Origin: Arthrobacter sp. CAN_C5
GTDB taxonomy: Bacteria; Actinomycetota; Actinomycetes; Actinomycetales; Micrococcaceae
Assembly: GCF_017875735.1 (NCBI RefSeq)
Contig: NZ_JAGGMZ010000001.1
Span: 1,736,001 to 1,800,000 of the forward strand
DNA length: 64,000 bases
Direction of reading: 5' to 3'
Shown: positions 21,767 to 57,615 of the stretch, in pieces
How the letters are laid out: every line of letters begins with the position of its first letter
Numbering within the stretch: the stretch's first letter is position 1
The notes under the pieces: model-generated
What the model was told of the DNA's origin: nothing
Database searches by the model: none
What the model saw: only the letters and a program-made list of their open reading frames with translations
Program-made: the position numbers and the translations under genes

Positions 21767-21905
21767 ACCTCAATTCCATCACCCGGCACTGACAAAACAA
21801 GGGGGAAATCAGGGGTGCTCAAGAAACTTTTTCAACTAATTCTCGAGGCCTGACAAAAGCCAAGATTGCTGATGTTCGAAAGCTCGAGAACTGCCCTTAG
21901 AAACC

Positions 21906-21943
21906 GGGGTCTGAGGAGGATTGGTGCGGAAATTCACGCTAAG
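21906..21943 (+). repeat. Left 38-bp terminal inverted repeat of the Tn3-family element
   Basis: Begins GGGG and ends TAAG, the typical Tn3-family end pattern. It matches the reverse complement of 57542-57579 at 36 of 38 positions. The preceding pentamer AAACC is the target duplication. Confidence 0.95.
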
Positions 21944-22049
21944 GGGTCCGGCGGCTGTTGAATTGGTTGCATGGCGGTCGAGTCTCTAAGTGATGAGCGG
22001 CTCTCCGTGGTTCGTGGTGAAAGTCGGGTTCGTGTCGTAGACGTATAGG

Positions 22050-22112
22050 GGCTCGTGGCCCTGCTGGGATGGATGTTCTTGACGCATTCATCACTGACAG
22101 GGCCCACGAGCC
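22050..22112 (+). other. Hairpin directly before the ISL3 transposase start
   Basis: GGCTCGTGGCCCTG (22050-22063) pairs with CAGGGCCCACGAGCC (22098-22112) with a single bulged base. The stem ends at the base before the TTG start. Such structures in IS leaders limit translation of read-through transcripts from outside; that role here is inferred from position. Confidence 0.6.
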
Positions 22113-23402
22113 TTGATCGAGCCTACTGCTCAGCGCCCTGACGCTGCCACTACTGTTTTCAACCTGCCCGGTTACCGGGTAACTAGCGCGGAGGTCCTTG
22201 CCTGCGGGCAGCGTAGAATCCGGGTCGAATCAGTCCTGGAAGCTGGCTGCAGGGGCTGTGGCGTGATCAGTGCCCGCCGGCATTCACGCCGGTTCCAGCG
22301 GATTCGTGACATCCGGGTCGCTGGCCCGGTCGAGGTCATCTGGTCCAAACGCAGGTTCTTCTGCGACGAGGCAGAATGCGCCCGGAAAACCTTCGCTGAA
22401 TCTACCCCGCAAGTACCCGCATACTCGCGGTCCACGGCGAGGCTGCGGGAGGCCCTGACCGATGCGGTGATCGGATCCGGGCGTGCCGCGTCGGAGACCG
22501 CCACTGCGTTCGGCGTGTCCTGGTGGCTGGTCCAGCGGGCCCTGGATACCGCGGTGGTGAAACTACCTGACGTGGACTCCCTGGCACCGGTCAGGTTGGG
22601 TATCGATGAGCACCGGTTCCGGTCCGTGCGGTTCTTCCAGGACCCCGCCACGAAAGCCTGGACCCGGTACGAACCGTGGATGTCCACCCTTGTCGACCTG
22701 GACACCGGGCAGGTCCTGGGTGTCGTCGACGGACGCGACAGCACCGGGGTCGGCGACTGGCTCAAGGCCCGCCCACTGGGGTGGCGGCTCGGCGTGCAGG
22801 TCGTCGCAATCGACCCATCAGCGGCGTTCCGCAAGGCGCTACGGATGTGGTTGCCCCGCACCGCGGTCAGCGTCGACGCGTTTCACCTGAGCATGCTCGC
22901 GAACGCTATGGTCACCGAGGTCCGCCAACGCCTCTGCCAGGAAGCCAAGGGCCGCCGCGGGCGCGCCACCGACCCGGTATGGGCAAACCGGAGACTACTG
23001 CTCAAGGGTACGGAACGGCTCTCGGACCGGGCCCGAAACCGTCTCGAGGTGGTCTTCTCCGTTGATGATCCCACCGGCGGGCTGCAGGCCGTCTGGGAGG
23101 TGAAGGAACAGCTCCGGACACTGCTGCACACTGGGTCGATCGCTGAGGCCACCGCGGCGAAGACCGAGCTCGCAAGACTGGTCGACCGTGCAGGCCAGCC
23201 CGAGGCCAGAAGGCTCTACCGCACGGTCTGCCGGTGGTGGAACGAGATCGAAGTCCTCATCGTCACCGGCGCCACCACCGCGAAAGTCGAGGCCAACAAC
23301 ACCGCGATCAAGAACATCAAAAGGACCGGACGGGGATTCGTCAATAACTCCAACTACAAAACCCGTATCCTATTGAGAAGCGCCGCTAGAACAGCGGCCT
23401 GA
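22113..23402 (+). CDS. ISL3-family transposase
   Basis: 429 residues from TTG (22113). N-terminal zinc-ribbon cysteines (CRGCGVIS, FFCDEAECARKTF), HTH region (ASETATAFGVSWWLVQRALD), then the DDE catalytic domain: GIDEHRFRSVRF, VVAIDPSAAFRKA and, near the C-terminus, KVEANNTAIKNIKRTGRGF with the catalytic Glu. Appears intact, but its element lacks a right terminus so self-mobility is unlikely. Confidence 0.9.
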   Translation: MIEPTAQRPDAATTVFNLPGYRVTSAEVLACGQRRIRVESVLEAGCRGCGVISARRHSRRFQRIRDIRVAGPVEVIWSKRRFFCDEAECARKTFAESTPQVPAYSRSTARLREALTDAVIGSGRAASETATAFGVSWWLVQRALDTAVVKLPDVDSLAPVRLGIDEHRFRSVRFFQDPATKAWTRYEPWMSTLVDLDTGQVLGVVDGRDSTGVGDWLKARPLGWRLGVQVVAIDPSAAFRKALRMWLPRTAVSVDAFHLSMLANAMVTEVRQRLCQEAKGRRGRATDPVWANRRLLLKGTERLSDRARNRLEVVFSVDDPTGGLQAVWEVKEQLRTLLHTGSIAEATAAKTELARLVDRAGQPEARRLYRTVCRWWNEIEVLIVTGATTAKVEANNTAIKNIKRTGRGFVNNSNYKTRILLRSAARTAA

Positions 23403-26400
23403 ACATCTCCTCAGCAGCGGAATTCACCACGAAACGCGAAGAGCCTGATGAGCAGGCCGCTGGGTTCGGCCGGTTCCCTGACGAGGTATCGCGGGAGGAC
23501 CTGGAACGCTTCTGTTGGTTGGACGATACCGATCTGTCGATAGTGGGCCGCCGCCGGGAACTCATAACCGTCTGGGATTCGCTGTTCAACTGGCAACGGT
23601 CCGTGTCGTGGGCCGGTTCCTGACGGATCCGCTGGCTGTCCCGTGGCCGGTGGTCGAGTCCCTGGCCGGACAGTTGGGCATTGCGGACGCTTCCGTTCTC
23701 AAGCTTTACGCGCAGCGGGGACAGACCGGTTATGAGCATGCCGAGGAGATCGCCGCCGTGTATGGGTACGTGGACTTCGCTGATCCGGTCAAGTATGAGG
23801 AACTGAGACTGTTCTTTTCGGCCCGGGCGTGGACGTCCTCGGAGGGGCCGGTGCGCGTGTTCGAACGGGCTGCGGTCTGGTTGCGTGAGCGGAAGGTCCT
23901 CCTTCCAGGTGTCTCCACGTTGACGCGCCTGGTTTCAGAGGTCCGTACCGGCGCGAATGACCGGCTCTATTCCGTGCTGGTTGACGCGGCCGGCCCCGCG
24001 CTGGTCCAGGAACTGGAGGGCTTGCTCCGCGTTGAGGACGGCTCAAGGCTGACCGTGTGGGAAAGGCTGCGGACGGGGCCCTCGAGGGTATCGGTGCCAG
24101 AGTTGCTGCGGCAGCTGGACCGGCTGGTCCGCCTGCGTTTCCTCGGCGCGGGGACTATTGATGTGGAGACGGTACCCGCGGGCCGGATGAATGCCTTGGC
24201 CCGTTACGGGTTGGCAGGCAAGGCATCGGCGCTTCAGGGGTTGTCGGGCCAACGCCGGGGCGCGACACTGCTCTGCGCGGTGCGGGCTTTGACGGCCGAG
24301 GTTGCCGATGATCTGTGTGATGCCTTGGACGCGATCGTCTCTGAACGGGTGGTCCGGAAGGCGGCTAGGGAATCCACGGCCACCCGGCTGAAGTCTCTGC
24401 CCCGCCTGTCGAAGGCCTCGCTGAAGCTGGCAATGGCCGCGGAAACACTGGTTGAGGTCCTGGGCAACACAAAATTGTCCGGGGCAGATGCCGCGTCGGT
24501 GCTTGCCGAACAGATTTCCCTACCCGAGTTGCGCGCCGCGGTGGATGTGGTGACTGAGTTGGTCAATCCGGACGGCAGCGAGGGCGACACCGCGGCCGAG
24601 ATGATGCGCCGGTTCGCCACGGTTCGTTCGTTCCTGCCGGCGTTGGCATCGGCGGCACCTTTTGGGGCAACGGCAGGCGGTGCCCAGACGTTGGCGGCCC
24701 TGGCAGCTTTGCCGGACGTTTTGGACGGCCGCAAAACCGATCCGGGCCAGGTTGATCTGACTGTCCTGTCCCCGGCATGGCAACGCCTTGTCGAGGCTGC
24801 GGGAGAGATCAACCGCAAGGCCTACACGGTGGCCGTGATGGACGCCGTCCATAAGGCGCTACGGCGCAGGGACATTTTCGTTGTCGACGGGCGCCGTTGG
24901 GGAGACCCCAGGGCACAGCTGCTGACCGACCCGGCGTGGCAGGAGACCAAGACAGAGACCTTGACGGCACTCCAGCTGCCCGAAGATCCCGCGGCCCACC
25001 TTGACGGTGCCCGGGAGAGCCTGGACGCCCGCTACCGTGCGGCGGCCGATCAACTGGCAGATAATCCTGCGGTACGAATCGGCGATGACGGCAAGGTTCA
25101 TCTCTCTCCCCTGGAGGCCAGGACGGTACCCGAGTCCTTGACCGAGCTGCGGGGGCTCGTGTCGGCGATGCTGCCGCGGGTGGACCTGCCCGATGTGCTG
25201 TTGGAAGTGCATTCCTGGACAGGGTTCCTGTCAGAATTCAGCCACGTGTCGGAAGCCTTCGCACGGATGGGCCAGCTCAGCGTTTCCGTCGCCGCCATCC
25301 TGGTGGCCGAGGCGTGCAACGTCGGCCTGACACCGGTGGTCAAGGACGGCCACCCCGCGCTGACCCGTGGACGCTTGTCACACGTCGATCAAAACTATGT
25401 GCGCGCCGATACGCTCCGCGCGGCGAACTCCCGGCTGGTCCAGACCCAGTCCGATCTTGGGCTCGCTCAACGCTGGGGTACCGGCATGCTGGCCTCCGTT
25501 GACGGAATGCGGTTCGTGGTGCCGGTCGCCACCGTCAATGCCGGGGCGAATCCACGCTACTTCGGCCAGGGTCGCGGCCTGACTTGGCTGAACTATCTCA
25601 ACGACCAGGTGGCAGGCCTGGGCGCCATCGTCGTCCCGGGAACGGTCCGCGATTCCCTGCACGTACTAGATGGGCTGCTCGATCTTGACGGGGGCGAACG
25701 TCCCGAGATGGTCGCCACCGACACGGCCTCCTACTCGGACCAGATTTTTGGGCTCTTCACCTTGCTCGGATACCGGTTCTCGCCCCGCCTGGCCGGTCTT
25801 CCCGATCAACGCTTCTGGCGCATCGACACCACAGCTGACTACGGACAGCTGAATGCCGTCGCCGGACGCAACCGGATCAACCTGGGCCTCATCACGGCGA
25901 GCTGGCCGGACATGCTCCGCCTGGCGGGATCCTTGACTGCCGGGACTGTGCGCGCCTCGGAAGTTCTGCGGGTCACTCAGGGCGGCGGAACACCAACCCT
26001 GCTCGGAAAAGCGTTGGCGGAGTACGGCAGGATAGCCAAAACCCGGCATCTACTGGACTTCATCGACGTTGACGAGGGCTACCGCCGGCAAATTCATACC
26101 CAGTTGGCGCTACAGGAATCCCGGCACGCCCTGGCCAGACTCATTTTTCACGGCCGCCGGGGCCAGATACGTCAGTCCTACCGGGAAGGCCAGGAAGACC
26201 AGCTCGGAGCCCTTGGCCTGGTCTTGAACGCCGTGATCCTGTGGAACACCAGGTACCTGGACGCCACGCTCACGGAGCTCCGCGACCGTGGTGCCCGTGT
26301 TGCCGATGAAGACGTACAACGCCTCTCCCCGCTGGTCTCGGAACACATCAACATGATGGGCCGTTACACCTTCACGGACGCCCCCGCCGGAGCGCCGCTC

Positions 26401-26439
26401 CGGCCCTTCCGACACCCGGACGAGGACCGGGAGAGCTGA
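23402..26439 (+). pseudogene. tnpA: Tn3-family transposase, start lost and one frameshift
   Basis: DDE transposase of the Tn3 family. From about 23402 one frame reads EFTTKREEPDEQAAGFGRF, then REDLERFCWLDDTDLSIVGRR; at about 23557 the match moves to the next frame as THNRLGFAVQLATVR and continues to 26439. One missing base explains it. No ATG, GTG or TTG opens the first frame after the stop at 23387. The catalytic domain is otherwise complete: Asp in ATDTASYSDQIFG, Asp in LITASWPDMLR, Glu in YREGQEDQLGALG. A TTG at 23515 could give a 974-residue protein lacking the first ~50 residues, so residual function is possible but doubtful. Transcription runs away from the left terminal repeat. Confidence 0.88.
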
Positions 26440-27392: not shown

Positions 27393-28762
27393 GGGTGTGT
27401 CAATAATTCGGTGTAACTAGTTGTGTTGTGGGTTAGCGTCCGACGCTGAGTCGGCCGTTGAAGGTGATGTCGAAGGCGTTAAGAGCAGCCTTCCATCGTT
27501 GGGTCCAGCGGGCCCGTCCCTGGCCTGTCGGATCCAGACTCATCACCGCGAGGTAGACACACTTCAGGGCGGCTTGCTCGTTCGGGAAGTGGCCCCGAGC
27601 CCGGACGGCTTTGCGGATCCTCGCGTTGACGGACTCGATCGCGTTCGTCGTGCACACGATCCGGCGGATCTCGGCATCGAACTTCAGGAACGGCACGAAC
27701 TCGGCCCATGCTGATTCCCAGAGCCTGACGATCGCCGGATACTTCTTCTCCCATGCCTCGCTGAACTCCAAGAACCGTTCCTCAGCCTGGTCGACCGTCG
27801 AGGCGGTATAGATCGGTTTCAGAGCTCTAGCGATCTTGTCCCAGTCCTGCCGGGCTGCATACCGGAAACTCGCCCGGATCAGGTGCACCACACAGGTTTG
27901 GGTGATCGCTTCTGGCCAGAGTGTCCCGATCGAATCGGGGAGCCCTTTCAGGCCGTCGCAGACGACCATGCAGACGTCCTCGACACCGCGGTTCTTGATC
28001 TCGGTGAGGACCTGCAACCAGTACTTCGCGCCCTCACCGCCGTCGCCGGCCCACAGCCCGAGAATATCCCGGTTCCCCTCGACCGTGACGGCCAGAGCCA
28101 CGTAGATGGGCCGGTTCGCCACCTGCCCGTCGCGGACTTTGACGTGGATGCAGTCAATGAAGATCACCGGATACACCGGGTCCAACGGCCGGTTCTGCCA
28201 CTCGGTCATGCCCTCGATGACCCGGTCGGTGATCGCCCCGATCGTCGTCTTTGACACGTCCGCGCCATACACCTCGGCCAGGTGGGCGCTGATGTCACCG
28301 TGGGTCAACCCTCGGGCCGAGAGCGACAACACCATCTCGTCGACCCCGGTGAGGCGGCGCTGGTGTTTGCGGACGATCTGCGGCTGGAATGACCCGTCCC
28401 GGTCCCCCGGGACCTCGATCGGGACAGGGCCGATCTCGGTCAACACCGTCTTGGTCCTCGACCCGTTCCGGGCGTTCGAGACGTCTCCAGCGCGTTCGTG
28501 TTTGTCGTAGCCGAGGTGGTCAGTGATCTCGCCCTCGAGCGCCGACTCCAGAACCATCTTCGTCAGCTGACCCAACAGGCCGGTCTCGCCGGTCAGTGCC
28601 AACCCCTTCTCCCGGGCCCTCCCGATGAGCTGCTCCACGAGCCGGCCGTCCACCACGTCATCCTGCTTCACCGTCGCCACGGCTTCACCCTCCACGTCGA
28701 TCTTCACGTCACTCATTACGGTTCCTCCTATTCAGGAGTTACACCGAAAATCGTACAGACCC
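27393..28762 (-). mobile_element. IS256-family insertion sequence
   Basis: 26-bp imperfect terminal inverted repeats: left 27393-27418 (reading GGGTGTGTCAATAATTCGG) and right 28737-28762, sharing TTCGGTGTAACT at the inner side. They enclose one transposase gene on the minus strand. The 8-bp flanks TCTTCATG and TCTACTGG do not match, so no target duplication is preserved; the right end abuts a truncated tnpB, suggesting a deletion next to the IS. Confidence 0.85.
27433..28716 (-). CDS. IS256-family transposase (mutator type)
   Basis: 427 residues. Conserved blocks: LGQLTKMVLESALEGEITDH and LGYDKHE near the N-terminus, IFIDCIHVKVRDGQV (first catalytic Asp), VVCDGLKGLPDSI (second Asp), HLIRASFRYAARQDW and IVCTTNAIESVNARIRKAV (catalytic Glu). 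Full length, no frameshift. Confidence 0.95.
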   Translation of the reverse strand: MSDVKIDVEGEAVATVKQDDVVDGRLVEQLIGRAREKGLALTGETGLLGQLTKMVLESALEGEITDHLGYDKHERAGDVSNARNGSRTKTVLTEIGPVPIEVPGDRDGSFQPQIVRKHQRRLTGVDEMVLSLSARGLTHGDISAHLAEVYGADVSKTTIGAITDRVIEGMTEWQNRPLDPVYPVIFIDCIHVKVRDGQVANRPIYVALAVTVEGNRDILGLWAGDGGEGAKYWLQVLTEIKNRGVEDVCMVVCDGLKGLPDSIGTLWPEAITQTCVVHLIRASFRYAARQDWDKIARALKPIYTASTVDQAEERFLEFSEAWEKKYPAIVRLWESAWAEFVPFLKFDAEIRRIVCTTNAIESVNARIRKAVRARGHFPNEQAALKCVYLAVMSLDPTGQGRARWTQRWKAALNAFDITFNGRLSVGR

Positions 28763-28784: not shown

Positions 28785-30257
28785 ATGCTAGCCGGAGAGG
28801 TTAGGAGGGCACTGGACTTCGACGAACTTCAAAGCCAGTCGATACGGCGCCTACCAATCGCGGAAAAGCCACAATTGCGGGCGTTGGTAGAGGGCTTGCG
28901 GAAAGCCGGTGTAGCGGCTCCACGCTTATCTCGAGCCGGCATCGGCAAACGGAAGTCCCAGGGCTGGGACGTCACGGACCCCCTCGTTAGCTTGGCGTGG
29001 CACACAGTGGTGGTAACCGCCGTCGGTGCGATGGGGCATCGAAGTGACCTCGAGGAACTCCGGCCGGTACTCCTTGCATGGGTTCGTGAATGCGGTTTCG
29101 AAGAGCAATGGTGCCGCGACAGCGCCCCCGTCACCCGAGCGGACAACCAAGAGCAGATACCTTGGTCTCTTCCCGCCGACCGGGCGAGCCTCAATTCGAC
29201 CAAAACCGCCGTGGAGTCCGCCGCCTTCTTTCTTACGTCCGCGCTCTCGGGGATGAGATCCTCAGAATTGCAGGAGCTCCGATTTGGCAGTCGCATGCAC
29301 GAAGACATGGGAAACGGCATCTTCCGCTATCGGATCTCATCCCGGCGGATTAAGGGACAACGATTCGGCGGTATCGATGATTCGTGGGTCGTGATTGAAG
29401 ATGTTTACCGTGCCTTGGGGATAGTCGAGTCGCTGCAGAACGCTTCGTCAAGCGAGTTGCTCTTCACAAAGCAGTCGAATTCCGACTCGGTCCGGTACGA
29501 CCGCTTTCGCAGGTGGATGAACGGACCCAATGGGCAGCGCCTGGGGCTGGTACCGGTTCCCGAAGGGCCCGTTAATCCACGCGCGCTTCGCCGAACGCTG
29601 GCGCTATCCATTGCCCAGCGCCCACACGGACTGATGGCAGCGAAATATCACCTCAAACACATCAGCGTAGCGACCACGGAGGGGTATGCGGCACGCCCCG
29701 GGGGACACCAAGCAGCTCTCCAAGCCGAAATTTCGGCAGAAGAAGATGCGGAACATTTACGGCTCACCGTCGCCGCGTACGACGACTACAAGCAGGGAAA
29801 ACTTCCCGTTGGTCGCGGAGCGAAAGAACTGGTCACTCTGTTCATTGCCGTCGATGAAGCTTTGACAGGCCACCAACCCGGTCCCGCTATCGTTATCGAT
29901 GACCGCCGGGTTGAACGCCTCCTCAAGGTTAAGGCCGAGAGTCTGCACATCGGAGCAGCAAATTATTGCTGGTTCAGCGATCCCAAAAAGGCGTTATGCC
30001 TCCAACTGGCTGGGACGCCAAACGCAAAAGCACCACTCATCGGGCTCTGCGATTCGGGACGCTGTCCCCAAGCGACGCATCACGAGGTACACCGCGAAGC
30101 CTGGGCAAATCACGCCGAAGCGACCCGCACGGTCTTTCTGGGCAACCCTCGGATTTCCAAACCTGAACGCGGCCGAGCTCAGGCGACCTTGGACAGGGCC
30201 AATCGGATCCTCACTGAAATAGACAACGCGACAGTCGCTCAAGGACCCCTCACATGA
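28785..30257 (+). pseudogene. tnpB: Tn554-type TnpB tyrosine recombinase, N-terminus lost
   Basis: 490 residues remain of a protein whose family is usually over 600. It is a tyrosine recombinase: FLTSALSGMRSSELQEL holds the first catalytic Arg; NPRALRRTLALSIAQRP and TTEGYAARPGG hold the second Arg and the nucleophile Tyr. A cysteine-bearing C-terminal region follows (LCDSGRCPQATHH). The N-terminal DNA-binding part is missing because the frame begins at the right end of the IS256. The stop overlaps the start of a small DUF6262-like gene (ATGA), the Tn554 tnpB-tnpC arrangement; tnpA of that system is absent. Confidence 0.78.
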
Positions 30258-30670
30258 AATCGGAACGACTGCAGGTAGAGAACCGGATCCGTGCAGCTAT
30301 CCGACAGTTGCTGGAAGGGGAGGTCCCGCTCGGAATGAAACGCGACATTACCAGCCTCTGCTCCATAGCGAACGTGTCTCGCGCCACCATGTATCGGACC
30401 TATCCGCATCTCAAAGCCGAGTTCGAGCAACAGCGGTTTCTGAGGGACCAAGCAGGGCCGAGCCCCGGTAGCACACCGGAACAAGAGCAGAAGCTGCAAA
30501 CCGAAAGGGACAGGCTCCAATTCCGCCTCGCAGAAATGGCAAGTAAGGTCCGTGAACTGGAAAATTTCAAGGAACAGGCGCTTTCAAGGCTGGCAGCCCA
30601 GAACGAGGAACTTCTGCGTCTGCGATCCAACAGCACGAACGTAGAGAACAAGGTTCAGAGCATCCGGTGA
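30254..30670 (+). CDS. tnpC: Tn554-type TnpC / DUF6262-like protein
   Basis: 138 residues. N-terminal HTH (DITSLCSIANVSRATMYRTY, around residues 33-52) followed by a long coiled coil (KLQTERDRLQFRLAEMASKV and on to the end). Matches the small third protein of Tn554-type elements that influences integration orientation and frequency. Coupled by ATGA to the tnpB remnant. Intact, but its partners are truncated or gone. Confidence 0.75.
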   Translation: MKSERLQVENRIRAAIRQLLEGEVPLGMKRDITSLCSIANVSRATMYRTYPHLKAEFEQQRFLRDQAGPSPGSTPEQEQKLQTERDRLQFRLAEMASKVRELENFKEQALSRLAAQNEELLRLRSNSTNVENKVQSIR

Positions 30671-30727: not shown

Positions 30728-31369
30728 CTATTCAGCGTTCTGCGTCGAGTCCTCTTCACGCAATGACACCAACGACCCGTCGGCCATCACCGATTCAGGG
30801 GGTCTTGGCGGCAGGTGCCTGTACAAGCTCGATCGAGTGATTCCTGTCTCGTCGACAATTTCGGTGATTGACCGTCCGGCGTCGCGTAAGTGTGCGGCAT
30901 AGGCAAGCTTGGACGGATCGACAACGGAGGGCCTGCCCACTCTTTTGCCTTGGCTCGTAGCCACCGACCGGGCATGAGATGCGCGCTCAATAGCGTAGGT
31001 TCGCTCCATTTGCCCGAACAACGCCAGCATGACCAGCGCTAGTTGCGACATTGGGTCATCCGGTTTAGCCGAATCCACCCTGATGGGATCGGCTAGGTTA
31101 CGCACCCCAATGCCCCGTTGGGCCAGATCGTGAATCATGTTCAGGGTATCGCGGACGGCGCGGCCGAGGCGGTCGAGGGTGTGTACTACGATGACATCTC
31201 CATCGCGGGCGTAGGCCAATGCTGTGTTGAGTCCTACCCTGTTGGTAGTTGACCCAGATTTCTTATCCACGTAAATGCGCTCACGAGCAATCCCTACAGC
31301 TCGGAGCGCATCTATTTGCCGATCGAGGTCCTGTTTGGCTGTCGAGACACGGGCGTAGCCGAGATCCAT
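30728..31369 (-). CDS. Serine recombinase (resolvase/invertase family)
   Basis: 213 residues. Catalytic Ser in YARVSTAKQDLDRQIDALR at residue 9; VVHTLDRLGRAVRDTLNMI contains the conserved DRLGR; the E-helix region is LALFGQMERTYAIERA; the C-terminal HTH is RSITEIVDETGITRSSLYRH. Looks functional. It differs clearly from the resolvase at 56911, so the transposon carries two unrelated small serine recombinases. An imperfect inverted repeat just upstream (about 31379-31400) might be part of a recombination site. Confidence 0.9.
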   Translation of the reverse strand: MDLGYARVSTAKQDLDRQIDALRAVGIARERIYVDKKSGSTTNRVGLNTALAYARDGDVIVVHTLDRLGRAVRDTLNMIHDLAQRGIGVRNLADPIRVDSAKPDDPMSQLALVMLALFGQMERTYAIERASHARSVATSQGKRVGRPSVVDPSKLAYAAHLRDAGRSITEIVDETGITRSSLYRHLPPRPPESVMADGSLVSLREEDSTQNAE

Positions 31370-31509: not shown

Positions 31510-31683
31510 CGCCTAATAAGGCCGTGGATTGCTTCACATGTGGTGAGCACCAATCCAGGCTGGGCTGCGCAGACCCGGAAGGAGTACCGTTTCCGGTCCA
31601 TCCACGTGGCCAAAAACCTGGGCTGGAATGGCAAGGTCAAAAGCGACGGCACGCGGCAGTGCCAAAGCGACGACTCGGTGCAT
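31510..31683 (-). pseudogene. GlxA-type regulator remnant (cassette copy 1)
   Basis: The minus strand from 31683 reads MHRVVALALP, then AVAFDLAIPAQVFGHVD, and after a frameshift RYSFRVCAAQPGLVLTT. This is nearly identical to the first 45 residues of the intact gene at 48609. It then ends without the rest of the domain or the AraC HTH. It is divergent from the alpha/beta hydrolase at 31784. Confidence 0.85.
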
Positions 31684-31783
31684 GGGGCCACTGAACTAAC
31701 GAATGCACCAGCGAGCAGGATCCTTTTCATATGAGGCGTTTTTGTTATGCCCCGCACCTACCGGTAAATGACAAAATGACAGC

Positions 31784-47544: not shown

Positions 47545-48249
47545 TCATCCCATTTCTGCGAAGGCTCGAACTGGGAAAGTGCCGAAATCGATGATTTTCG
47601 GTGGGACCGCTGTGAAGCGAGAGCCCCTCTCCGGCAGATTGGCGAGGTTGGTGAGGTGTTCGACAATATGGATCCCAGCGCCCAGCAGAATGCTGTGGGC
47701 TGGCCGGTCACCCCCGGAATCCTTGTCATCAATGTTGAGGGAGTCGATGCCGACCAAAGTTACGCCCGCATCGGCCAGGAAACCTGCACCCTCCTCGGAC
47801 AAAAAGGGAGCGCCGGTCGCGTATGCAGCAGTGCCGAAGTGTCGATCCCAGCCGGTATGGAGGAGAACTGCCTTCCCCTTCAGGTCCCGTTTCCGGAAGG
47901 CTCCGGCGTGTATACCACGTCCAGAGCCCAGGGGTACGTGGACCACCTCGGCGTCTAGGCCGACAAGTGTTCTGAGTTCCAGTCCTGCGAGGTCGGCCCC
48001 GCCTGAGAAGCAGTGAAACGGGCTGTCGATGTAGGTGCCCGTGTTGCCGATCATTGTGATCGTGTCGAGCGTGAACTCCGAGCCGGGGGAGAACCGGGTC
48101 GGTGATTGCTCACGTGATAGATACGACGCGATCGTGGGCGCTGGTAATCCCGGATAGGTTACCGCCCCTGCGGCGATCGTATGGCTCAGGTCAACCACCC
48201 GGCGGGCGGGACGCTCAAAGGACGGTGCACTTGAGCTGGGTGTTGGCAT
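47545..48249 (-). CDS. Cyclase-family protein (kynurenine formamidase-like)
   Basis: 234 residues. The family hydrolyses formamides, lactams or related bonds with a divalent metal. The N-terminal RVVDLSHTIAAGAVTYPGLP and LLHTGWDRHFGT are conserved blocks. The usual metal motif HxGTHxDxPxH reads NTGTYIDSPFHCF, so two of the normal His ligands are Asn and Tyr; this belongs to a variant subgroup or has altered metal binding. Divergent from the GlxA-type regulator at 48609, with a hydrolase remnant between. Confidence 0.85.
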   Translation of the reverse strand: MPTPSSSAPSFERPARRVVDLSHTIAAGAVTYPGLPAPTIASYLSREQSPTRFSPGSEFTLDTITMIGNTGTYIDSPFHCFSGGADLAGLELRTLVGLDAEVVHVPLGSGRGIHAGAFRKRDLKGKAVLLHTGWDRHFGTAAYATGAPFLSEEGAGFLADAGVTLVGIDSLNIDDKDSGGDRPAHSILLGAGIHIVEHLTNLANLPERGSRFTAVPPKIIDFGTFPVRAFAEMG

Positions 48250-48262
48250 CAGTTCTTACCTT

Positions 48263-48508
48263 TCAAAGCGGTGAATAGCTGCAAAAGCATAGAGGCCGTT
48301 CTCGTGCATGGAACGGGAAAGACTCGTCGCTACCGACCCTCGAGCGCGTCACTGGTACGACAATGAGCTCCGCACCACCGTGACCACCGCTGCAGTGGTG
48401 AACGCCCGATGAACTCGGGGGACTGGGCGTCGGGCTAGGCTGCCGACGGCCATGCAGGATCAACCGCTGGACGGCCCCCGCCGTCTTCTGCCTGCCAAAA
48501 ACCATCAT
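48263..48508 (-). pseudogene. Alpha/beta hydrolase remnant (cassette copy 3)
   Basis: The minus strand opens MMVFGRQKTAGAVQRLI, matching the first residues of the hydrolase copies (MVISGWKRMTAAV; MMISRAQKTTAAA) and in the same divergent position relative to the GlxA gene. Only about 20 codons are comparable; the rest is scrambled and ends in a short unrelated tail. Confidence 0.6.
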
Positions 48509-48608
48509 GAAAACATGCTGTCACTCGTTGAAGTCGAGAGTGCATGGCAGAAATGTCCGGTAACGAAAGGATTCTGCTCACTTGATGTGGGGCCAGTACA
48601 GTGGCCCT

Positions 48609-49562
48609 ATGCACCGAGTCGTAGCTTTGGCACTGCCTGATGTGGTTGCTTTTGACCTCGCCATTCCAGCGCAGGTTTTCGGTCACGTGGACGAACGGAG
48701 TCGCTATTCTTTCCGAGTCTGCGCAGCGCAGCCGGGTCTGGTGCCTACGACTTCTGGATACTCCATCCAGGCCGCTGATGGGCTGGATGCCCTTCTGTCC
48801 GCGGACACCATCGTGGTACCAGGCTATGAACCACTCAATGATCCTCCGGCCGAAGTCTGCCAAGCGCTCCGTCAAGCCGCGGCCAATGGAGCCCGCGTTG
48901 TGTCGGTGTGTACGGGCGCTTTTGCTCTTGCAGCATCAGGCCTTCTGGACGGTAAACGAGCAACCACCCACTGGAGAAACGCCGCCCGCCTTCAAACCCT
49001 GTACCCGGAGATTACCGTCGATGCGGACGTTCTGTACGTAGACCAAGGGAACGTCAGCACCAGCGCCGGCGTCGCAGCAGGCATCGATCTATGCCTTCAT
49101 TTGGTTCGTAAGGATTTCGGGACCGAAGCGGCGAATAGTATTGCGCGGCGGATGGTCGTGGCCCCGCATCGCGAAGGAGGTCAGGTCCAATTCATGGAAA
49201 GACCAGTAGCCGCTCCCCTAACTCTCTTCTCCGACACGTGCGAGTGGGCTAGGCAGAACCTGACTCAACCGCTCACAGTAGACGAAATGGCTGACCATGC
49301 AGGTTGGGCATCCAGAAGCTTCACCCGCAAATTCACCGCCGAAGCAGGAACGACGCCCCTGAAATGGTTGAACGATCAACGCATAGCTGAAGCCTGTCGG
49401 CTCCTAGAGACCACCGATCTAACAGTGAGTGCTATTGCATCCAAGACAGGTCTGGGAACGACCGCGAATTTTCGCCTTCACTTTACCCGAAAACTCAATA
49501 CGACGCCCTCGAGCTACCGCCGCCTCTATCAAGGTAGGAACCGGCAAGCTGCACCGGCGTAA
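48609..49562 (+). CDS. GlxA-type AraC-family transcriptional regulator
   Basis: 317 residues from ATG 48609; an earlier in-frame ATG (48582) precedes the region conserved with copy 1. The N-terminal DJ-1/PfpI-like domain has VVPGYEPLNDPPAEVCQALR and the elbow VVSVCTGAFALAASGLLDG, with Cys in place. The C-terminal double HTH is LTVDEMADHAGWASRSFTRK, AGTTPLKWLNDQRIAEACRL and SAIASKTGLGTTANFRLHF. Such regulators sense small metabolites. It faces the cyclase-family gene, a likely target. Intact; a frameshifted paralogue is at 31510. Confidence 0.92.
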   Translation: MHRVVALALPDVVAFDLAIPAQVFGHVDERSRYSFRVCAAQPGLVPTTSGYSIQAADGLDALLSADTIVVPGYEPLNDPPAEVCQALRQAAANGARVVSVCTGAFALAASGLLDGKRATTHWRNAARLQTLYPEITVDADVLYVDQGNVSTSAGVAAGIDLCLHLVRKDFGTEAANSIARRMVVAPHREGGQVQFMERPVAAPLTLFSDTCEWARQNLTQPLTVDEMADHAGWASRSFTRKFTAEAGTTPLKWLNDQRIAEACRLLETTDLTVSAIASKTGLGTTANFRLHFTRKLNTTPSSYRRLYQGRNRQAAPA

Positions 49563-50430: not shown

Positions 50431-50864
50431 TGTCGGCATGAGACAAATTGACTAACGGACATGTCTCGTGCCCACATATCTGACATATCCGATTCGCATC
50501 ATCAAAATGTATCACTAACCGGGTTGGGCGTTACATTGTCGAGTACACGGAAAGCGTTACAAAATAAGGCGCTTGATTCCGCGGTTTCCAACACCGGGTT
50601 GGAAGTGTCTCGCTAACGATCGTTTGCGGCCGTCAACAGGCTCGTCCCTTCTGCCGTTTCATTCATCCCAGTCACCATCCGAAACGCAATACGGTATCTT
50701 GATCAAAGGACGGCCTCGGTTACCGTTTTTCGCTGTTTACGACACTTTCCGTCTGACCGCACGGCGAGCTACCACCAAAGGGCACTCGTTATGAACAGAC
50801 ACGACGGCGCACACTTCAACACCGCCGACTACGCAGATCCGATCCCCATACACCACACAAGGCT
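50431..50864. other. Leader region of the sigma-factor operon
   Basis: 434 bp without a supported gene. A 28-codon frame starts at ATG 50791 and runs into the sigma-factor start, but has no clear ribosome site. The promoter of the sigma operon should be here; I cannot assign boxes with confidence. Confidence 0.45.
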
Positions 50865-51479
50865 ATGGATCAGCTGATTTTGAACGCGTCCGAACGTAGA
50901 TCCGCCGGAGTGAACTTTCAGGCAGATCACAAACCACTAGCCGAGCTTCTTCACCGTGCGGGCGAAGGAGACCGGGATGCTTTCACCACGTTCTACCAAC
51001 TCACATCTCACCGGGTCTATGGTCTTGCGCGCCGGGTCACCGTCGACGCTGAGATAGCCCACGACGCCACCCAGGAAATCTTCCTCATCGTCTGGCAGGA
51101 CGCCCACAAATACAACCCCACAATCGGTAATCCCATGGCCTGGCTGATGACCATCACCCACCGCCGAGCCGTTGATAAAGTCCGCTCAGAACAAGCCAGA
51201 ACCGACCGGGACGCGCTCTGGGGTGTCGCGAACCACAGCCCGGACTACGACGTCGTAGCCGAAACCGTTACCACCAGAATAGAAGCCCAATCCGTCACCG
51301 CCTGCCTGGGAAGCCTCTCTGCCGCCCAACGAGAAGCAATCAGCCTCGCCTACTACAACGGCCTGACCTACCGTGAAGTCGCCGAACGTCTGTCCATCCC
51401 GCTACCGACCATCAAAACCAGAATCCGAGACGGACTCAAACACCTGAGAACCTGCCTAGACGAGGGCCCAACCAAGTGA
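50865..51479 (+). CDS. ECF sigma factor, SigK-like group
   Basis: 204 residues. Region 2: LLHRAGEGDRDAFTTFYQLT, AHDATQEIFLIVWQDAHKY, GNPMAWLMTITHRRAVDKVR. Region 4: LGSLSAAQREAISLAYYNGL and TYREVAERLSIPLPTIKTRI. The pattern is like actinobacterial SigK. A SigK partner would usually be the membrane anti-sigma RskA, but the next gene shows no membrane helix. GTGA overlap with the following gene implies coupled translation. Confidence 0.92.
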   Translation: MDQLILNASERRSAGVNFQADHKPLAELLHRAGEGDRDAFTTFYQLTSHRVYGLARRVTVDAEIAHDATQEIFLIVWQDAHKYNPTIGNPMAWLMTITHRRAVDKVRSEQARTDRDALWGVANHSPDYDVVAETVTTRIEAQSVTACLGSLSAAQREAISLAYYNGLTYREVAERLSIPLPTIKTRIRDGLKHLRTCLDEGPTK

Positions 51480-51769
51480 CCCCTCTCCTTCAAAACCAGA
51501 CAGCAAACATCGAGCAGACCCCCTCGATGGAAGAACCGGCACGACGGCTCGCCGATCTTCAGTCAGCCCGCGCCCACCTGGCACGCACCGTGCTTAGCTT
51601 CTTGGCAGGATGTGTAAACACCGATTCGATCTGCGACCCCAGCGCGCACATCACACCAAACACACAACGACTACTCAGCGCAGCAATACGTGACTTAGTG
51701 GCCATAGACGATCAACTAGATGAAGCCCGCAATCCGCTCACCACGCCCTTTCCCGAACGCGTGCAGTAG
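51476..51769 (+). CDS. Hypothetical protein coupled to the ECF sigma factor
   Basis: 97 residues from GTG overlapping the sigma stop (GTGA). Predicted helical and soluble (ARRLADLQSARAHLARTVLS; LLSAAIRDLVAIDDQLDEA), one Cys pair in GCVNTDSICD. No family recognised and no membrane segment. Being coupled to the sigma gene, it could be a soluble anti-sigma or co-regulator; this is positional inference only. Confidence 0.65.
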   Translation: MTPLLQNQTANIEQTPSMEEPARRLADLQSARAHLARTVLSFLAGCVNTDSICDPSAHITPNTQRLLSAAIRDLVAIDDQLDEARNPLTTPFPERVQ

Positions 51770-51781
51770 AAAGTAGAACCG

Positions 51782-52018
51782 ATGGACCACAACAGTAGGA
51801 TCACGCCAGAAGAGCTATTTCCGGCGGACCTAACCATCCTGGATGACACCGAGGTGGAAGTGCTCAACAGCAAGGTTCGCCGTGAACTGGACGCTGAATA
51901 CCTCGATTCAAATCCTGAACCTGAAACTGAAGGACGCCTAGAAGAACTCACTACCGAGCTCAACCGACGAGACCTGGTCACAGCACAACCACCCCACGAA
52001 ACGGGCGACCCGCTGTAA
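51782..52018 (+). CDS. Small acidic hypothetical protein
   Basis: 78 residues, strongly acidic (many Asp/Glu), with EVEVLNSKVRRELDAEYLDS and GRLEELTTELNRRDLVT suggesting helices. No family recognised. It begins 12 bp after the previous gene, the third of a likely sigma-factor operon, and ends 250 bp before an IS1380 element. Confidence 0.6.
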   Translation: MDHNSRITPEELFPADLTILDDTEVEVLNSKVRRELDAEYLDSNPEPETEGRLEELTTELNRRDLVTAQPPHETGDPL

Positions 52019-52270
52019 CCCACTACTCCCGATCGATAACCATCGTTCGCAAGACCGTTTGAGACCCCTCACAGCCCAAGGAATACAAGGGCTCGCCGTG
52101 TAACGGTTGCCGCGGCGTACGCACCATCGCAAGGGGTACCTCCCTTCGCGACACACCAAATTGGCGAAGGACTTCTTGGCTACAAACCGGCCCGGTCGCC
52201 CCGGCCGACGGCTGATTTCTGGTGAATATTCGCGCTAACGTCGCATATTTCACTTTTTCACAAGCCACCC

Positions 52271-53977
52271 CTAGCCTCGATCTTTCATGAGGCGGTCTCG
52301 TCGGTGTGATCGGGGCTTACTGGCTGCCTGATGGTGTTGATTCTGGCATGTGGGTACGACATTGTTGCCGCTGACCGGTGGCGGTGGTCGGTGATGGTTC
52401 CACGTCCATCACGTCGAGACTGCTTTTCCTGCTCGGGGTCGGTCGGCGATGGTGGCTTTTACGGCGGGTCCAGGGCTCTGATGCGGGTGAGGGCTTTGAT
52501 GAGCAGCGGCGTGTCAGGGGCTCTGGCGGCGAGATGCACGGTCAGGCGTCGGGCGTGCCAGCTGGTCGTCCCGGCGATCTCGAAGATCCTCGCCCGGAGC
52601 CTTTTTGGCTCCCAGCGTCTGGCTTTCGTGCCGTGGAGGCCGAGCATCTGTGCCCAGGCCATGATTTCGGCGGCGAGCATGACCAGATGACACCAGAGCG
52701 TGTTTCCCGCGAAGGAGTGCAGGGGCAGGTTCGCCAGGCCGGTGTCTTTGGCGTTACGGATCCTGTCCTCGCACCGGGCCCGTAACCGGTGGCGGACCTC
52801 GAGGTCCGCGAGCTGGCCATGGTCCTGGTTCGTGGCCAGGGCCGTGTAGCGCATCCCGTCGACATCAGTGATCCTTAATTGCGCGCCGACATGGGGTACT
52901 TCCTTGCGGACGATGACCCGCATCCCGGCCGGCCAGGAAGATAGATCCAGCATCCCGGTAATATCGGCGACCCATGCCCCGTCGCGTTCGATCCCGTCAC
53001 TGTTATAGGCGCGGGTCCACGCGGTCTTCGGGACCTGGGGCAGGACCGCTTCGACGGCCCCGTGGAGCGGGAACCCCACCGAATAGGCGAGGTTCCGGCG
53101 TGGGTGGGTGAGCCAGTCAAGGTATTCGTGGGTGCCGCCGGCGGAATCGGTGCGGATCATCACCTTCCGGCCTGACCGGAATCCTGCCGGCAACTGCTTC
53201 AGGGCGTCCCTGGTGACCTGGATGTGATCGGAGGCGGTGTTGGATCCGGCGTTCCCCGGGCGGAGTAGTACCGCCAACGGTTCCCCGCTGCCCTCGGCCC
53301 CGTGATCCACGAACGCAGCCAGCGGGTGGAAGCCGAAGCCTTTCTTCCAGGTCGGGCGGGCGTCCTCCTTCTCCGAATGCGAGCTCAGCAGCGTCGCGTC
53401 CAGATCCACTACCAACGGCGCGTCCCTGCTCACCCCGTGCAACGGTGACTGGTCACCGGCTAAACCCCACACCTGCGCCCTGGCTGCGGAACGGGTCGTG
53501 TTGATCGCCGCCAACGCCTTCTTCGGGGCCGTGGTGGATAAGGTCGTTACCAGCCGGCTTACCGTCGGGTCGGAGGCGACGCGGCCGTAAACCTGTGGTT
53601 GGGCGCGGAGCCTGTCCACATCGGATAAGCAGTCGCCGCCGGTGGCCAGGGACAAACCAGGTCGGTGAGGATCTTCCCCGGATCGTGCACCGCGAAAGGC
53701 TTACGCCACAGCGATAAGGCCTCCGACAAGCCCGACCCGATCCCGGACACCCGGACCGTATCCGTCAGGATCAACCCGCCGGCCTGGGACACCACCCCGG
53801 ACCCTACCGAATCAACACGGACGGACGGGTAGAAACCGGTAAAGTTACTCACCAGAAAGGTGCTCCTTTTGACGCGGTACAAATGATGCCTAGACAACAC
53901 CATTTTCCCACGTCAGGAGCACCTTTCGCCGTTCAACGCACCGCTCTGAGACCACCTTCATGAAAGCCCGAGGCTAG
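52271..53977 (-). mobile_element. IS1380-family insertion sequence
   Basis: Imperfect inverted ends: left CTAGCCTCGATCTTTCATGA (from 52271) and right TTCATGAAAGCCCGAGGCTAG (to 53977, here 52271-like when reversed), both followed inward by GGTCTC. One damaged transposase gene inside. The flanks show no matching 4-bp duplication. Confidence 0.8.
52459..53852 (-). pseudogene. IS1380-family transposase, frameshifted
   Basis: Starts at GTG 53852 (AAGGAGC upstream; VSNFTGFYPSVRVDSVG). Near 53655 the frame must change: PGKILTDLV is followed in the next frame by SLATGGDCLSDVDRLRAQPQ. The rest is whole: LVVDLDATLLSSHSEKED (catalytic Asp region), RTDSAGGTHEYLDWL, ALATNQDHGQLADLEVRHR, and the C-terminal AGNTLWCHLVMLAAEIMAWA. 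One missing base explains the break. Confidence 0.88.
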
Positions 53978-54487: not shown

Positions 54488-54644
54488 ATCTCACCTCGGC
54501 GCGTCGATCAGGTGCGGTAGCCCTACGTGTCAGGGTGAGTTGAGGCCAGTGGCTCATAGCAAGTCCGTCTAATTCGTAGGGCGAGAATCAGGATCAGAAC
54601 CAATGTCTATCTCCACAATTTCCCGGGTGCGGGAAGATGGGTCC

Positions 54645-55040
54645 ATGAGTAATTCTGGCCCTCGTGCCGGCGGTCCAAGGCCTCGAAGGTCGTTTACCCC
54701 GGCGCAGAAACTAGCCCATCTGGCCGCTTACCAACAGGCCTGTGACGATGGCTCCGGAGGCGGGGCGTACCTTCGTCGTGAGGGCATCTATTCCTCCCAG
54801 ATCACTGAGTGGCGCAAACTCCGTGATGCAGGTGTGCTCGAGGGTAGGAAGCCCGGGGAGAAGATCGGCAAGCTTACCGCTGAGCAGGCCGAAATCGCCC
54901 GTCTACGCCGGCAACTGGAGGTGAATGAACGCACGCTGGCACGGACTCGGGCAGCGTTGGACATCATGGGAAAAGCACGGCAGCTTTTGGAGGAAATCTC
55001 CGAAAGCGAGGAGCAGCAGCAGTGGTACAGGAAACCCTGA
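54645..55040 (+). CDS. IS3-family transposase OrfA (element D)
   Basis: 131 residues from ATG 54645 (MSNSGPRAGGPRPRRSF); an in-frame ATG at 54603 lacks a ribosome site. HTH region FTPAQKLAHLAAYQQACDDG with GIYSSQITEWRKLRDAGVLE, then coiled coil EIARLRRQLEVNERTLART. Overlaps OrfB by 19 bp. Confidence 0.85.
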   Translation: MSNSGPRAGGPRPRRSFTPAQKLAHLAAYQQACDDGSGGGAYLRREGIYSSQITEWRKLRDAGVLEGRKPGEKIGKLTAEQAEIARLRRQLEVNERTLARTRAALDIMGKARQLLEEISESEEQQQWYRKP

Positions 55041-56041
55041 TGGGGGTTTATGCCGAACTCACAGGTGCGCATATCCCCACGCGGGAAGCGGCGGTCTTGG
55101 CCGGGATACCGCGGGCGACCGCAACCCGCAGCCCGCGGATCCCGCAGGCCGGGCCGATGCCCGTGTCTGTCCCGGCAAACAAGCTCGACCCGGACGAACG
55201 CGCCGGTATCCTCGCTGCCGTGAACTCTGCCCGCTTCGTGGATCTAGCCCCGGTCCAGATCTACGCGCAGCTGCTGGACGAGGGGACCTACCTGTGCTCA
55301 ATCTCAACGATCTACCGGATATTGACTGAGAATAAGCAGGTCAAAGAGCGCCGCCGGCAGGCACGCCATCCGCCCAGGACCGTTCCGGAATTGACAGCGG
55401 CTGGCCCCGGGCAGGTCTACAGCTGGGACATTACCAAGCTTGCCGGCCCGGTCAGGGGTAAGTACTTCGATGCCTACGTGATGCTCGATATTTACTCCCG
55501 CTACATCGTGGGCGCATACGTCCATGCCCACGAATCCGGGGAGTTGGCGGTGGAGATGATGAAGGAAATCTTCGGTATCCACGGCATCCCGGAAATCGTG
55601 CACGCGGACCGCGGGACTTCTATGACGTCCAAGACCGTAGCTGTACTGCTCTCCGATCTGGAAGTCACCAGGTCACACTCCAGGCCCCGCGTATCCAATG
55701 ACAACCCCTACAGCGAGGCGTGGTTCAAGACCTTGAAATTCGCTCCCGTGTTCCCTGAACGATTCGGCTCCCTGGCCGATGCGAGGGCCTTCATGGCGAC
55801 TTTTGTCGAAGGATACAACCACAGCCACCGCCATACCGGAATCGGACTAAACACCCCGGCAGACGTCCACTACGGTCTTGCCGCGACGAAGGCCACCGAA
55901 CGCTCCATCACTTTGGCCGCCGCACGGCAGAAGAATCCCGAACGATTCAGCACCGAAACGGACCCAAAAATACTCACCGTCCCCGGCGCGGCATGGATCA
56001 ACAAACCATCCCAGGAAACCCAGACAGAAGCAGCCGCCTAA
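55022..56041 (+). CDS. IS3-family transposase OrfB (element D)
   Basis: 339 residues from GTG. Integrase core: Asp in GQVYSWDITKLAGPVRGKYF, Asp in IVHADRGTSMTSKTVA, Glu in DNPYSEAWFKTLKF; then YNHSHRHTGIGLNTPADVHY. Longer C-terminal tail than element A. Intact. Confidence 0.92.
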   Translation: MVQETLMGVYAELTGAHIPTREAAVLAGIPRATATRSPRIPQAGPMPVSVPANKLDPDERAGILAAVNSARFVDLAPVQIYAQLLDEGTYLCSISTIYRILTENKQVKERRRQARHPPRTVPELTAAGPGQVYSWDITKLAGPVRGKYFDAYVMLDIYSRYIVGAYVHAHESGELAVEMMKEIFGIHGIPEIVHADRGTSMTSKTVAVLLSDLEVTRSHSRPRVSNDNPYSEAWFKTLKFAPVFPERFGSLADARAFMATFVEGYNHSHRHTGIGLNTPADVHYGLAATKATERSITLAAARQKNPERFSTETDPKILTVPGAAWINKPSQETQTEAAA

Positions 56042-56068
56042 CTCCCACTGGCCCCATTCACCTTGACA

Positions 56069-56385
56069 ACTTCCGTAGCGCGGTCGTGGATCTCCCACAG
56101 CGACACTTGGGGTGAAGGATCTGTTCGTTTTGCGTTGTTCACTGATTGATCGAGTGGTGTACTTCACCTATGCCGTATCCGAGACAGGGTAGGCGTCCAG
56201 CCTGATTAAGTGCTGCACGATTGTTTGGACGGTGACGGAACCGCGAACGAATCTACACGCTGTATTGCGACGGGGGGCAAAAAGTGTTTGTTCCGGCCCG
56301 AGTGCCAACTGATGCCTTGTTCGTTTACCTGTATGGATACCCGTTCTATGTCATGAGCCCTGTGATTGGATGAGAGGAAGACTCA
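56069..56385. other. Intergenic, no gene seen
   Basis: 317 bp after IS3 element D; only short frames. GAGGAAG near its right end is the ribosome site of the next gene. Confidence 0.5.
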
Positions 56386-56730: not shown

Positions 56731-56910
56731 CCCCATGTTCTCCCGGGCCGGTACCGTCTCAGCCCGCCCGTTAGCCGGTCCCCCGGCGGTGCAAGCATCA
56801 CCCAAATTTTACGGATCAAAAATCGGCGCGTTTCCGCAGCTCTTCGATTCCCGTAAGACCCGCCCGCAAAAATGCCCGGTGAAGGGGGTGCAACCGGTAC
56901 ATTCAAAACC

Positions 56911-57495
56911 ATGACCGGACTGCTGATCGGATACGCGCGTGTATCCACCAACGACCAAGACCTCACCGGCCAAAAGAATGCCTTGGTTGCCCTTGGGGTG
57001 GCGCCGGAGAAGACATTCACCGACCAGGGCCTCACCGGCGCCAACCGGGCGCGTCCCGGACTCAGGGAAGCGTTGGCTGCCTGCCGGGACGGGGACACCC
57101 TGATTGTGACCAAACTCGACCGCCTTGCCCGGTCGCTGCGCGATGCGAAGGATATTGTCGATGAGCTCACCCGCCGTGAAGTCAAGCTCAGCATCGGCGG
57201 CTCCGTCCATGACCCGACCGATCCCGTGGGCCGACTCCTCTTCAATGTCCTGGCCATGGTCGCGGAATTCGAAGCCGACCTGATCCGGGCCCGTACCCGG
57301 GAAGGCATGGCCGTTGCCAAGGCGAAGGGCCGGCTGCGGGGGAAGCAACCCAAGCTCTCCAAGAAGCAGGAAGCCCACCTGGTCTCGGTCCACCGAGCCG
57401 GGACACACACGACGGCGGAACTTGCCGAACTCTTTGCCGTCGCCCGTTCAACCGTTTACCGTGCCATCAAACGCGCGGGCGACGCCACCGGTTAG
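56911..57495 (+). CDS. tnpR: Tn3-family resolvase (serine recombinase)
   Basis: 194 residues from ATG 56911; the frame opens 13 codons earlier. Catalytic Ser in LIGYARVSTNDQDLTGQKNA at residue 10; VTKLDRLARSLRDAKDIVDE; long E-helix NVLAMVAEFEADLIRARTRE; C-terminal HTH TTAELAELFAVARSTVYRAI. Resolves the cointegrate made by TnpA by recombining two res sites. It lies 46 bp inside the right terminal repeat, over 30 kb from tnpA. The res site is expected in 56731-56910; I could not delimit the subsites. Confidence 0.93.
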   Translation: MTGLLIGYARVSTNDQDLTGQKNALVALGVAPEKTFTDQGLTGANRARPGLREALAACRDGDTLIVTKLDRLARSLRDAKDIVDELTRREVKLSIGGSVHDPTDPVGRLLFNVLAMVAEFEADLIRARTREGMAVAKAKGRLRGKQPKLSKKQEAHLVSVHRAGTHTTAELAELFAVARSTVYRAIKRAGDATG

Positions 57496-57541
57496 ATCCG
57501 CAAAATTTCACCGTTCACGCCGGAAACCACACCAACCCACC

Positions 57542-57579
57542 CTTAGCGTGAATTTCCGTACCGATCCTCCTCAGACCCC
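57542..57579 (-). repeat. Right 38-bp terminal inverted repeat of the Tn3-family element
   Basis: Begins CTTAGCGTGAATTTCCG and ends CAGACCCC, the inverted counterpart of 21906-21943 with 2 mismatches. The next five bases are AAACC, identical to those before the left end. Confidence 0.95.
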
Positions 57580-57615
57580 AAACCTCAACGCGATCCAAAG
57601 TCGGCTGAACCCAGC

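What the first reader, a model, noticed from the sequence alone, without database searches (positions are those of the whole stretch)
21901..57584. Complete 35.7-kb Tn3-family transposon with 38-bp inverted repeats and an AAACC duplication
The two ends are 38-bp inverted repeats (36 of 38 identical, GGGG...TAAG form), each flanked on the outside by AAACC. That is a textbook Tn3-family signature, at 35.7 kb an unusually large unit for a chromosome. It carries its own tnpA and tnpR at opposite ends and a mixed cargo of hydrolases, regulators and a sigma factor, with no standard resistance genes seen. The empty site can be reconstructed as an intergenic gap between the lipoprotein and HNH genes.
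Basis: partly seen in the sequence, partly recalled or inferred. Interest (0 to 1): 0.85.

Follow-up and report, generated by a model that had tools for sequence, protein, structure and literature searches.

The report
Worn-out large Tn3-family transposon
A real 35.7-kb jumping DNA unit of a well-known family sits in this bacterial chromosome, but its own jumping gene has been broken by another mobile element and about a third of its length is other mobile elements, so it is mostly an ordinary, decaying passenger.

Summary
38-bp inverted ends (36/38) lie at 21906-21943 and 57542-57579, each flanked by AAACC. In 2 of 38 same-genus genomes a match runs straight through the uninterrupted junction. 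The unit belongs to a Tn3-family lineage of Micrococcales: 29 of 395 family genomes searched (own included) hold a near-match to the end. Of ten units I could delimit, window included, 8 have tnpA starting at one end and tnpR reading out through the other, and 7 have matching 5-bp duplications. The published Arthrobacter transposon Tn6517 has the same layout.

Two corrections. It is complete only as a structure: tnpA is broken near its start by an ISL3 insertion (own 8-bp duplication) and by a frameshift, and the genome has no other match to the Tn3 transposase family, so it is probably immobile. Its size is accretion: nine IS copies make 12.9 of 35.7 kb. The rest is a broken-up mosaic of hydrolase and regulator genes with 75-98% identical relatives elsewhere in the chromosome. 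New member of a known kind.

The parts
21901..21905 (.). left copy of the 5-bp target duplication AAACC
21906..21943 (+). IRL, 38 bp
21971..21998 (+). first nine codons of tnpA, up to the ISL3 insertion
   Evidence: relatives
21999..23445 (+). ISL3-family IS inserted in tnpA; 8-bp duplication TGATGAGC at 21991-21998 and 23446-23453
23446..26439 (+). rest of tnpA; frameshifted within about 40 codons after the insertion, so the listed 974-aa frame starts at an internal TTG (23515) and lacks the native N-terminus
27393..28762 (-). IS256-family copy, 99.6-99.8% identical to two other copies in the genome; no flanking duplication of 3-11 bases found
28785..30670 (+). tail of a tyrosine-recombinase module: 490 aa related to part of a 736-aa plasmid protein, then a 138-aa frame
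30728..31369 (-). second serine resolvase, 33% identical to the terminal tnpR
31518..34734 (+). fragment of an AraC/DJ-1 gene (31518-31695, - strand), alpha/beta hydrolase (31784-33115), beta-lactamase-fold protein (33112-34734); collinear, with gaps, with G000:C1 2.276-2.281 Mb
35918..40154 (.). two IS3-type copies: 35918-37214 (duplication GAC) and 37231-40154 (duplication TTT), the second split by an IS30-type copy at 37729-39389 (duplication CGG); this block is absent from the chromosomal paralogue L084
41153..42302 (+). TipAS-domain protein (41153-41821) and a beta-lactamase-fold gene fragment (42147-42302)
42404..45029 (.). IS3-type copy (42404-43660; 97-99% identical at seven other sites in the genome) followed by an IS110-type copy in two frames (43661-45029)
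45225..49562 (.). second beta-lactamase-fold gene (45225-46274 -), cyclase-family gene (47545-48249 -), AraC/DJ-1 regulator (48582-49562 +)
50607..52026 (+). segment with an ECF sigma factor (50865-51479), 98% identical to G000:C1:232804-234223
52275..53973 (-). IS1380-type copy, duplication CTAG
54517..56075 (+). IS3-type copy (frames 54603-55040 and 55022-56041); ends taken from own-genome homologues, no terminal repeats found
56767..56910 (+). putative res region: blocks conserved upstream of tnpR in relatives
   Evidence: alignment read by eye; subsites not shown
56872..57495 (+). tnpR, serine resolvase (start perhaps 56911, as annotated in the U41 plasmid relative)
57542..57579 (-). IRR, 38 bp
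57580..57584 (.). right copy of AAACC

Best explanation
A Tn3-family transposon of a Micrococcales lineage inserted once between the DUF222/HNH gene and the gene to its right, copying 5 bp of target (AAACC). Shown: ends, duplication, empty site in two relatives, family relationship. In this lineage tnpA usually starts at the left end, tnpR reads out through the right end, and cargo lies between them (8 of 10 delimited units). By established Tn3 biology TnpA would have joined donor and target as a cointegrate and TnpR would have split it at res (inferred; not tested here). Before or after the insertion the interior filled with IS copies and was rearranged (IS copies and several of their duplications shown; timing inferred). 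One ISL3 copy and a frameshift broke tnpA, and with no other Tn3 transposase found in the genome the unit is probably stuck (inferred).
For: Ends and duplication. tnpA hits PF01526 at 449 bits and NF033527 at 895 bits, cut-off 500; the only solved relatives found are Tn4430 transposase chains, E about 1e-117. tnpR next to IRR. The relatives with ends share with the window essentially the stretches 21906-22014, 23446-26484 and 56831-57582. Empty site in G015 and G024. ISL3 with an 8-bp duplication inside tnpA, and a frameshift against all seven relatives aligned. One match to the Tn3 DDE family in the genome.
Against: Of nine delimited relatives, two do not show the layout: in G027 the only resolvase found lies beside tnpA, and in L116 no tnpR was found at E <= 1e-10 and tnpA is in pieces. 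The outer five bases differ in three of the nine (L018, L115, G027). In L115 tnpA and tnpR are themselves in pieces. That the cargo travelled with the insertion is not shown; no second copy of the whole unit was found in the searches made. The empty-site relatives are 77-82% identical over the matched flanks, with small gaps at the junction.
Confidence: 0.93

Rival explanations
1. Compatible with a single insertion, but a different history: a small unit of about 5 kb (tnpA-tnpR) inserted first and almost all the 30 kb between was added in place by IS activity and recombination with other loci of this chromosome, so the 35.7-kb unit never moved as a whole.
For: The other delimited units are 3.9-12.3 kb (eight) and about 13.5 kb (G027). 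Nine IS copies inside, two of them matched at 97% or more elsewhere in this genome. Cargo pieces match several other loci of the same chromosome.
Against: Apart from the 98% segment 50607-52026, the cargo matches are 75-92% identical, too diverged for recent copying from those loci. The relative L024 carries about 9 kb between tnpA and its right end with matching outer five bases, so cargo can travel in this lineage.
Confidence: 0.45
2. The two ends come from separate insertions of related transposons, with chromosomal DNA caught between them.
For: Two different resolvases inside; tnpR with the right end has a 97% relative on an Arthrobacter plasmid in whose fetched 30 kb no tnpA was found.
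Against: Matching AAACC, and two relatives join left and right flanks directly.
Confidence: 0.04
3. tnpA still works from the internal start, so the unit is mobile.
For: A 974-aa open frame with the whole DDE domain remains.
Against: Against relatives it lacks about 46 native N-terminal residues and begins with about 16 out-of-frame ones; the DUF4158 match starts at profile position 40. Relatives have open frames of 1007-1008 aa.
Confidence: 0.07

Closest known systems
Tn6517, Arthrobacter sp. ANT_H40 plasmid pA40H2 (PMC6305408, passages seen)
   Same: Tn3 family; 38-bp ends beginning GGGGTCTGA and ending GCTAAG, 5-bp duplication TGGTA; tnpA at one end and a recombinase gene reading out through the other, cargo between
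Unnamed units of the same lineage, such as those in Arthrobacter sp. H5 (L015), Paeniglutamicibacter (L019, L024) and Brevibacterium aurantiacum (L017)
   Same: TnpA 84-88% identical in seven of nine delimited relatives (pieces of 70-93% in L115 and L116), same kind of ends, layout shared by seven of the nine, matching outer five bases in six of nine
   Different: 3.9 to about 13.5 kb; different cargo, for instance an E1-E2 ATPase and a pyridine-nucleotide disulphide reductase in L024
Tn4430
   Same: TnpA homologous over residues 17-966 of the window frame
   Different: Encodes the tyrosine resolvase TnpI (PMC7157771, passages); this unit has a serine resolvase at its end
Tn3 itself
   Same: Serine resolvase; 38-bp ends (recalled)
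   Different: tnpR and tnpA are divergent with res between them (PMC7157771, passages)

Membership tests
Tn3 family | about 38-bp inverted repeats of GGGG...TAAG form | tested here: met
Tn3 family | 5-bp target duplication | tested here: met
   empty site
Tn3 family | Tn3-type DDE transposase of about 1000 aa | tested here: met
   by homology; the gene itself is broken
Tn3 family | resolvase gene | tested here: met
Tn3 family | res site beside the resolvase | tested here: inconclusive
   conserved blocks upstream of tnpR, subsites not demonstrated
Tn3 family | replicative transposition through a cointegrate | not testable with these tools
   needs an experiment
Autonomous (self-moving) Tn3 transposon | intact transposase gene | tested here: not met
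   ISL3 insertion and frameshift near the start
A named Tn3 subgroup (Tn3, Tn21, Tn163, Tn4430 and so on) | place in the TnpA tree | not tested

The most novel reading that the evidence does not exclude
The lineage has a split transposition module with one cargo slot between tnpA and res/tnpR, and recombination at or near res exchanges cargo and even the resolvase end: tnpR next to the right end ranges from 99% (U41 plasmid) to 36% (L024) identity to this one, while TnpA stays at 84-88% in seven of nine delimited relatives, and sequence conservation begins at the presumed outer edge of res.
Probability: 0.25. Interest if true: 0.4.

Novelty: new member of a known kind. Interest (0 to 1): 0.28.

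Why it matters
It documents a widespread Tn3 lineage in Micrococcales, with an unambiguous insertion site and a clear record of how a transposon bloats with insertion sequences and loses its transposase. The set of relatives offers a way to ask how Tn3 cargo is exchanged. No known resistance gene was recognised and no new mechanism is shown.

Tried and rejected
Plasmid copies of the unit: no record holds 80% of either half searched (21906-40000, 40001-57579). Close relatives of the 540-aa beta-lactamase-fold protein at E <= 1e-60: own genome (two copies, 92%) and one genome at 36% among 295 of the family; own genome and four at 36-38% among 396 of the order. Hydrolase in plasmids: 95 records, none covering 80% of it, all below 60% identity. 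Rfam (gathering threshold) and tRNA scans of the window: nothing. A further end-like sequence in the window with up to 13 mismatches: none. PHROGs for proteins of unknown role: no strong match apart from resolvase and a weak integrase hit, and the gene right of the insertion matches families without a known function.

Left out of the count of delimited units: L013, L016, L021, L022, L023 and L025 (left end and tnpA, no right end within the stretch fetched); loci without an end; G197 (two ends 180 kb apart) and G059 C14 (ends facing outward), as well as the other single ends of that call. Not checked against the own genome as DNA queries: 22001-26439 and 52271-57579.

Literature: no paper held all four terms or all five; searches led to PMC7157771, PMC6305408 and PMC7765201, of which I saw listings and passages only. 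I make no claim that the split layout is absent from print; Tn6517 shows it.

Full report
Observation. A 151-base query over the left end finds only the two ends in the 3.86-Mb genome. The element is 35,674 bp, G+C 61.0% against 64.9% for the rest of the window.

Single insertion. A query joining the flanks with one AAACC was searched in 38 genomes of the genus, own included; 17 have some match, many of them to repeats or to paralogues of the HNH gene. In two, G015 and G024, one match runs through the junction (81% and 77%), and alignment shows the left and right flanks joined with small gaps at the junction. My typed query held one extra 9-base repeat unit in the right flank, far from the junction; the script used the true sequence.

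Family. The tnpA frame matches the Tn3 DDE domain over its full length (449 bits) and NCBI's Tn3 transposase model (895 bits, cut-off 500). Its only solved relatives found are Tn4430 transposase chains. A scan of genome contigs returned 16 loci at 64-90% identity in the best segment, in Arthrobacter, Paeniglutamicibacter, Paenarthrobacter, Pseudarthrobacter, Specibacter, Brevibacterium and Cryobacterium. In the genus, 7 of 38 genomes, own included, have a TnpA match, and only G027 and G018 besides the own genome have a close one (88 and 87%). The end pattern with up to 2 mismatches occurs in 29 of 395 family genomes, own included; the reversed control shows 0 in the rows listed.

Layout. By blastn the relatives that have an end share with the window essentially three stretches, 21906-22014, 23446-26484 and 56831-57582: ends, tnpA, tnpR. 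Other matches in that call are short or partial: a piece of an IS3-type copy in L025, of ISL3 in L009 and L012, 78 bases in L007, resolvase-region pieces in L028, and a second diverged TnpA in L022. I could delimit ten units counting the window: L015, L017, L018, L019, L024, L115, L116 (same contig as L026), L117 and G027 (L014 with L085). Eight of ten have tnpA beginning at one end and tnpR reading out through the other; in L115 both genes are in pieces. The exceptions are L116, with no tnpR found at E <= 1e-10 and tnpA in pieces, and G027, where the resolvase found lies beside tnpA. The outer five bases match in seven of ten; L018, L115 and G027 do not match. Sizes are 3,889 to 12,309 bp for eight relatives and about 13.5 kb for G027. 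Tn6517 has the same layout on its plasmid record: ends at 6822-6859 and 13864-13901, tnpA 6887-9979, recombinase 13260-13841, both on the + strand of L120. PMC7157771 (passages) says that tnpR may be co-oriented with or divergent from tnpA and that passenger genes generally lie away from the transposition and resolution genes; here they lie between the two.

The transposase is broken. In three relatives read the TnpA frame opens 56 bases after the start of the left end and a shared ATG follows at about 65; open frames of 1007-1008 aa are listed for L015, L018, L019, L024 and L117. In the window the shared ATG is at 21971; nine codons later comes an ISL3-family IS (21999-23445) flanked by the 8-base duplication TGATGAGC, and tnpA resumes after it. 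A frameshift follows within about 40 codons against all seven relatives aligned. The 974-aa frame thus begins at an internal TTG and lacks about 46 native residues; its DUF4158 match starts at profile position 40. The right end of this IS agrees, by eye, with the 24 bases printed for the right end of ISArsp7 (PMC6305408). The genome has one match to the Tn3 DDE family, so no helper is visible. That the unit is immobile is inference.

Accretion. Nine IS copies were mapped: ISL3, IS256, four IS3-type, IS30, IS110 and IS1380, in all 12,922 bp, 36% of the element. Family names rest on Pfam domains and on plasmid annotations. Flanking duplications were found for ISL3 (8 bp), IS3a (GAC), IS3b (TTT), IS30 (CGG) and IS1380 (CTAG); the flanks of IS3c are runs of G and not informative; none was found for IS256, IS110 or IS3d. 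Duplications of 3-4 bases are weak evidence one by one. The IS30 sits inside IS3b, an uninterrupted 90% relative of which lies at 2.608 Mb. The IS256 copy is 99.6-99.8% identical to two others, and IS3c 97-99% to seven others.

Cargo. The hydrolase and beta-lactamase-fold genes (31538-35917) and the TipAS region (40154-42303) are collinear, with gaps, with one chromosomal locus at 2.276-2.283 Mb, 80-92% identical, which lacks the IS block 35918-40154. Other pieces match other loci: 45216-46883 at 0.267 Mb (84-86%), 47553-48213 and 49855-50208 near 2.21 Mb (75% and 80%), 48472-49549 at 2.2755 Mb (79%), 50607-52026 at 0.233 Mb (98%). Fragments of the AraC, hydrolase and beta-lactamase-fold genes recur inside the unit, so the cargo is rearranged. 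The beta-lactamase-fold proteins fall far below the curated cut-offs listed for resistance enzymes; I take them for esterase- or peptidase-like enzymes of unknown substrate (inference).

res. Upstream of tnpR, blocks near 56767-56790, 56847-56856 and 56874-56911 are shared with L015 and L117, and in part with L017 and L018, whose tnpR is 69% identical; the U41 plasmid relative lacks the first block (read by eye). I read these as res; the subsites are not shown. That conservation begins there, while tnpR identity ranges from 99% (L029) to 36% (L024), suggests exchange of cargo and end modules near res. A known alternative is insertion of other elements into res, described for Tn6603 (PMC7765201, passages). 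This most novel reading is not proven.

Verdict. A genuine Tn3-family insertion, well spotted: structurally complete, its transposase gene broken, and large in good part because it is filled with insertion sequences. New member of a known kind.

Noticed in passing
28785-30670: Tail of a tyrosine-recombinase module; on a Microbacterium plasmid (L087) the related genes follow two more long frames, so the window seems to hold the end of a four-gene mobile element cut near the IS256 copy.
   Followed up: partly
50607-52026: ECF sigma-factor segment 98% identical to 0.233 Mb, much closer than the other cargo pieces; in L104 it abuts a homologue of the IS3-type copy 54517-56075.
   Followed up: partly
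58063-58144: 9-base tandem repeat (CTCGGCCTC) inside the gene right of the insertion.
   Followed up: no
20051-21766: The 5' part of the DUF222/HNH gene to the left has four long matches of 77-90% elsewhere in the genome.
   Followed up: no
62536-63687: Type I restriction specificity subunit close to the right flank.
   Followed up: no
L022 12909-15872: A second, 48% identical Tn3 transposase directly after a tnpA of this lineage that matches only to residue 886, as if one Tn3 unit had inserted in another.
   Followed up: no
L029 15001-15771: Plasmid of Arthrobacter sp. U41 carries tnpR plus the right end at 97%, with no tnpA found in the 30 kb fetched.
   Followed up: partly
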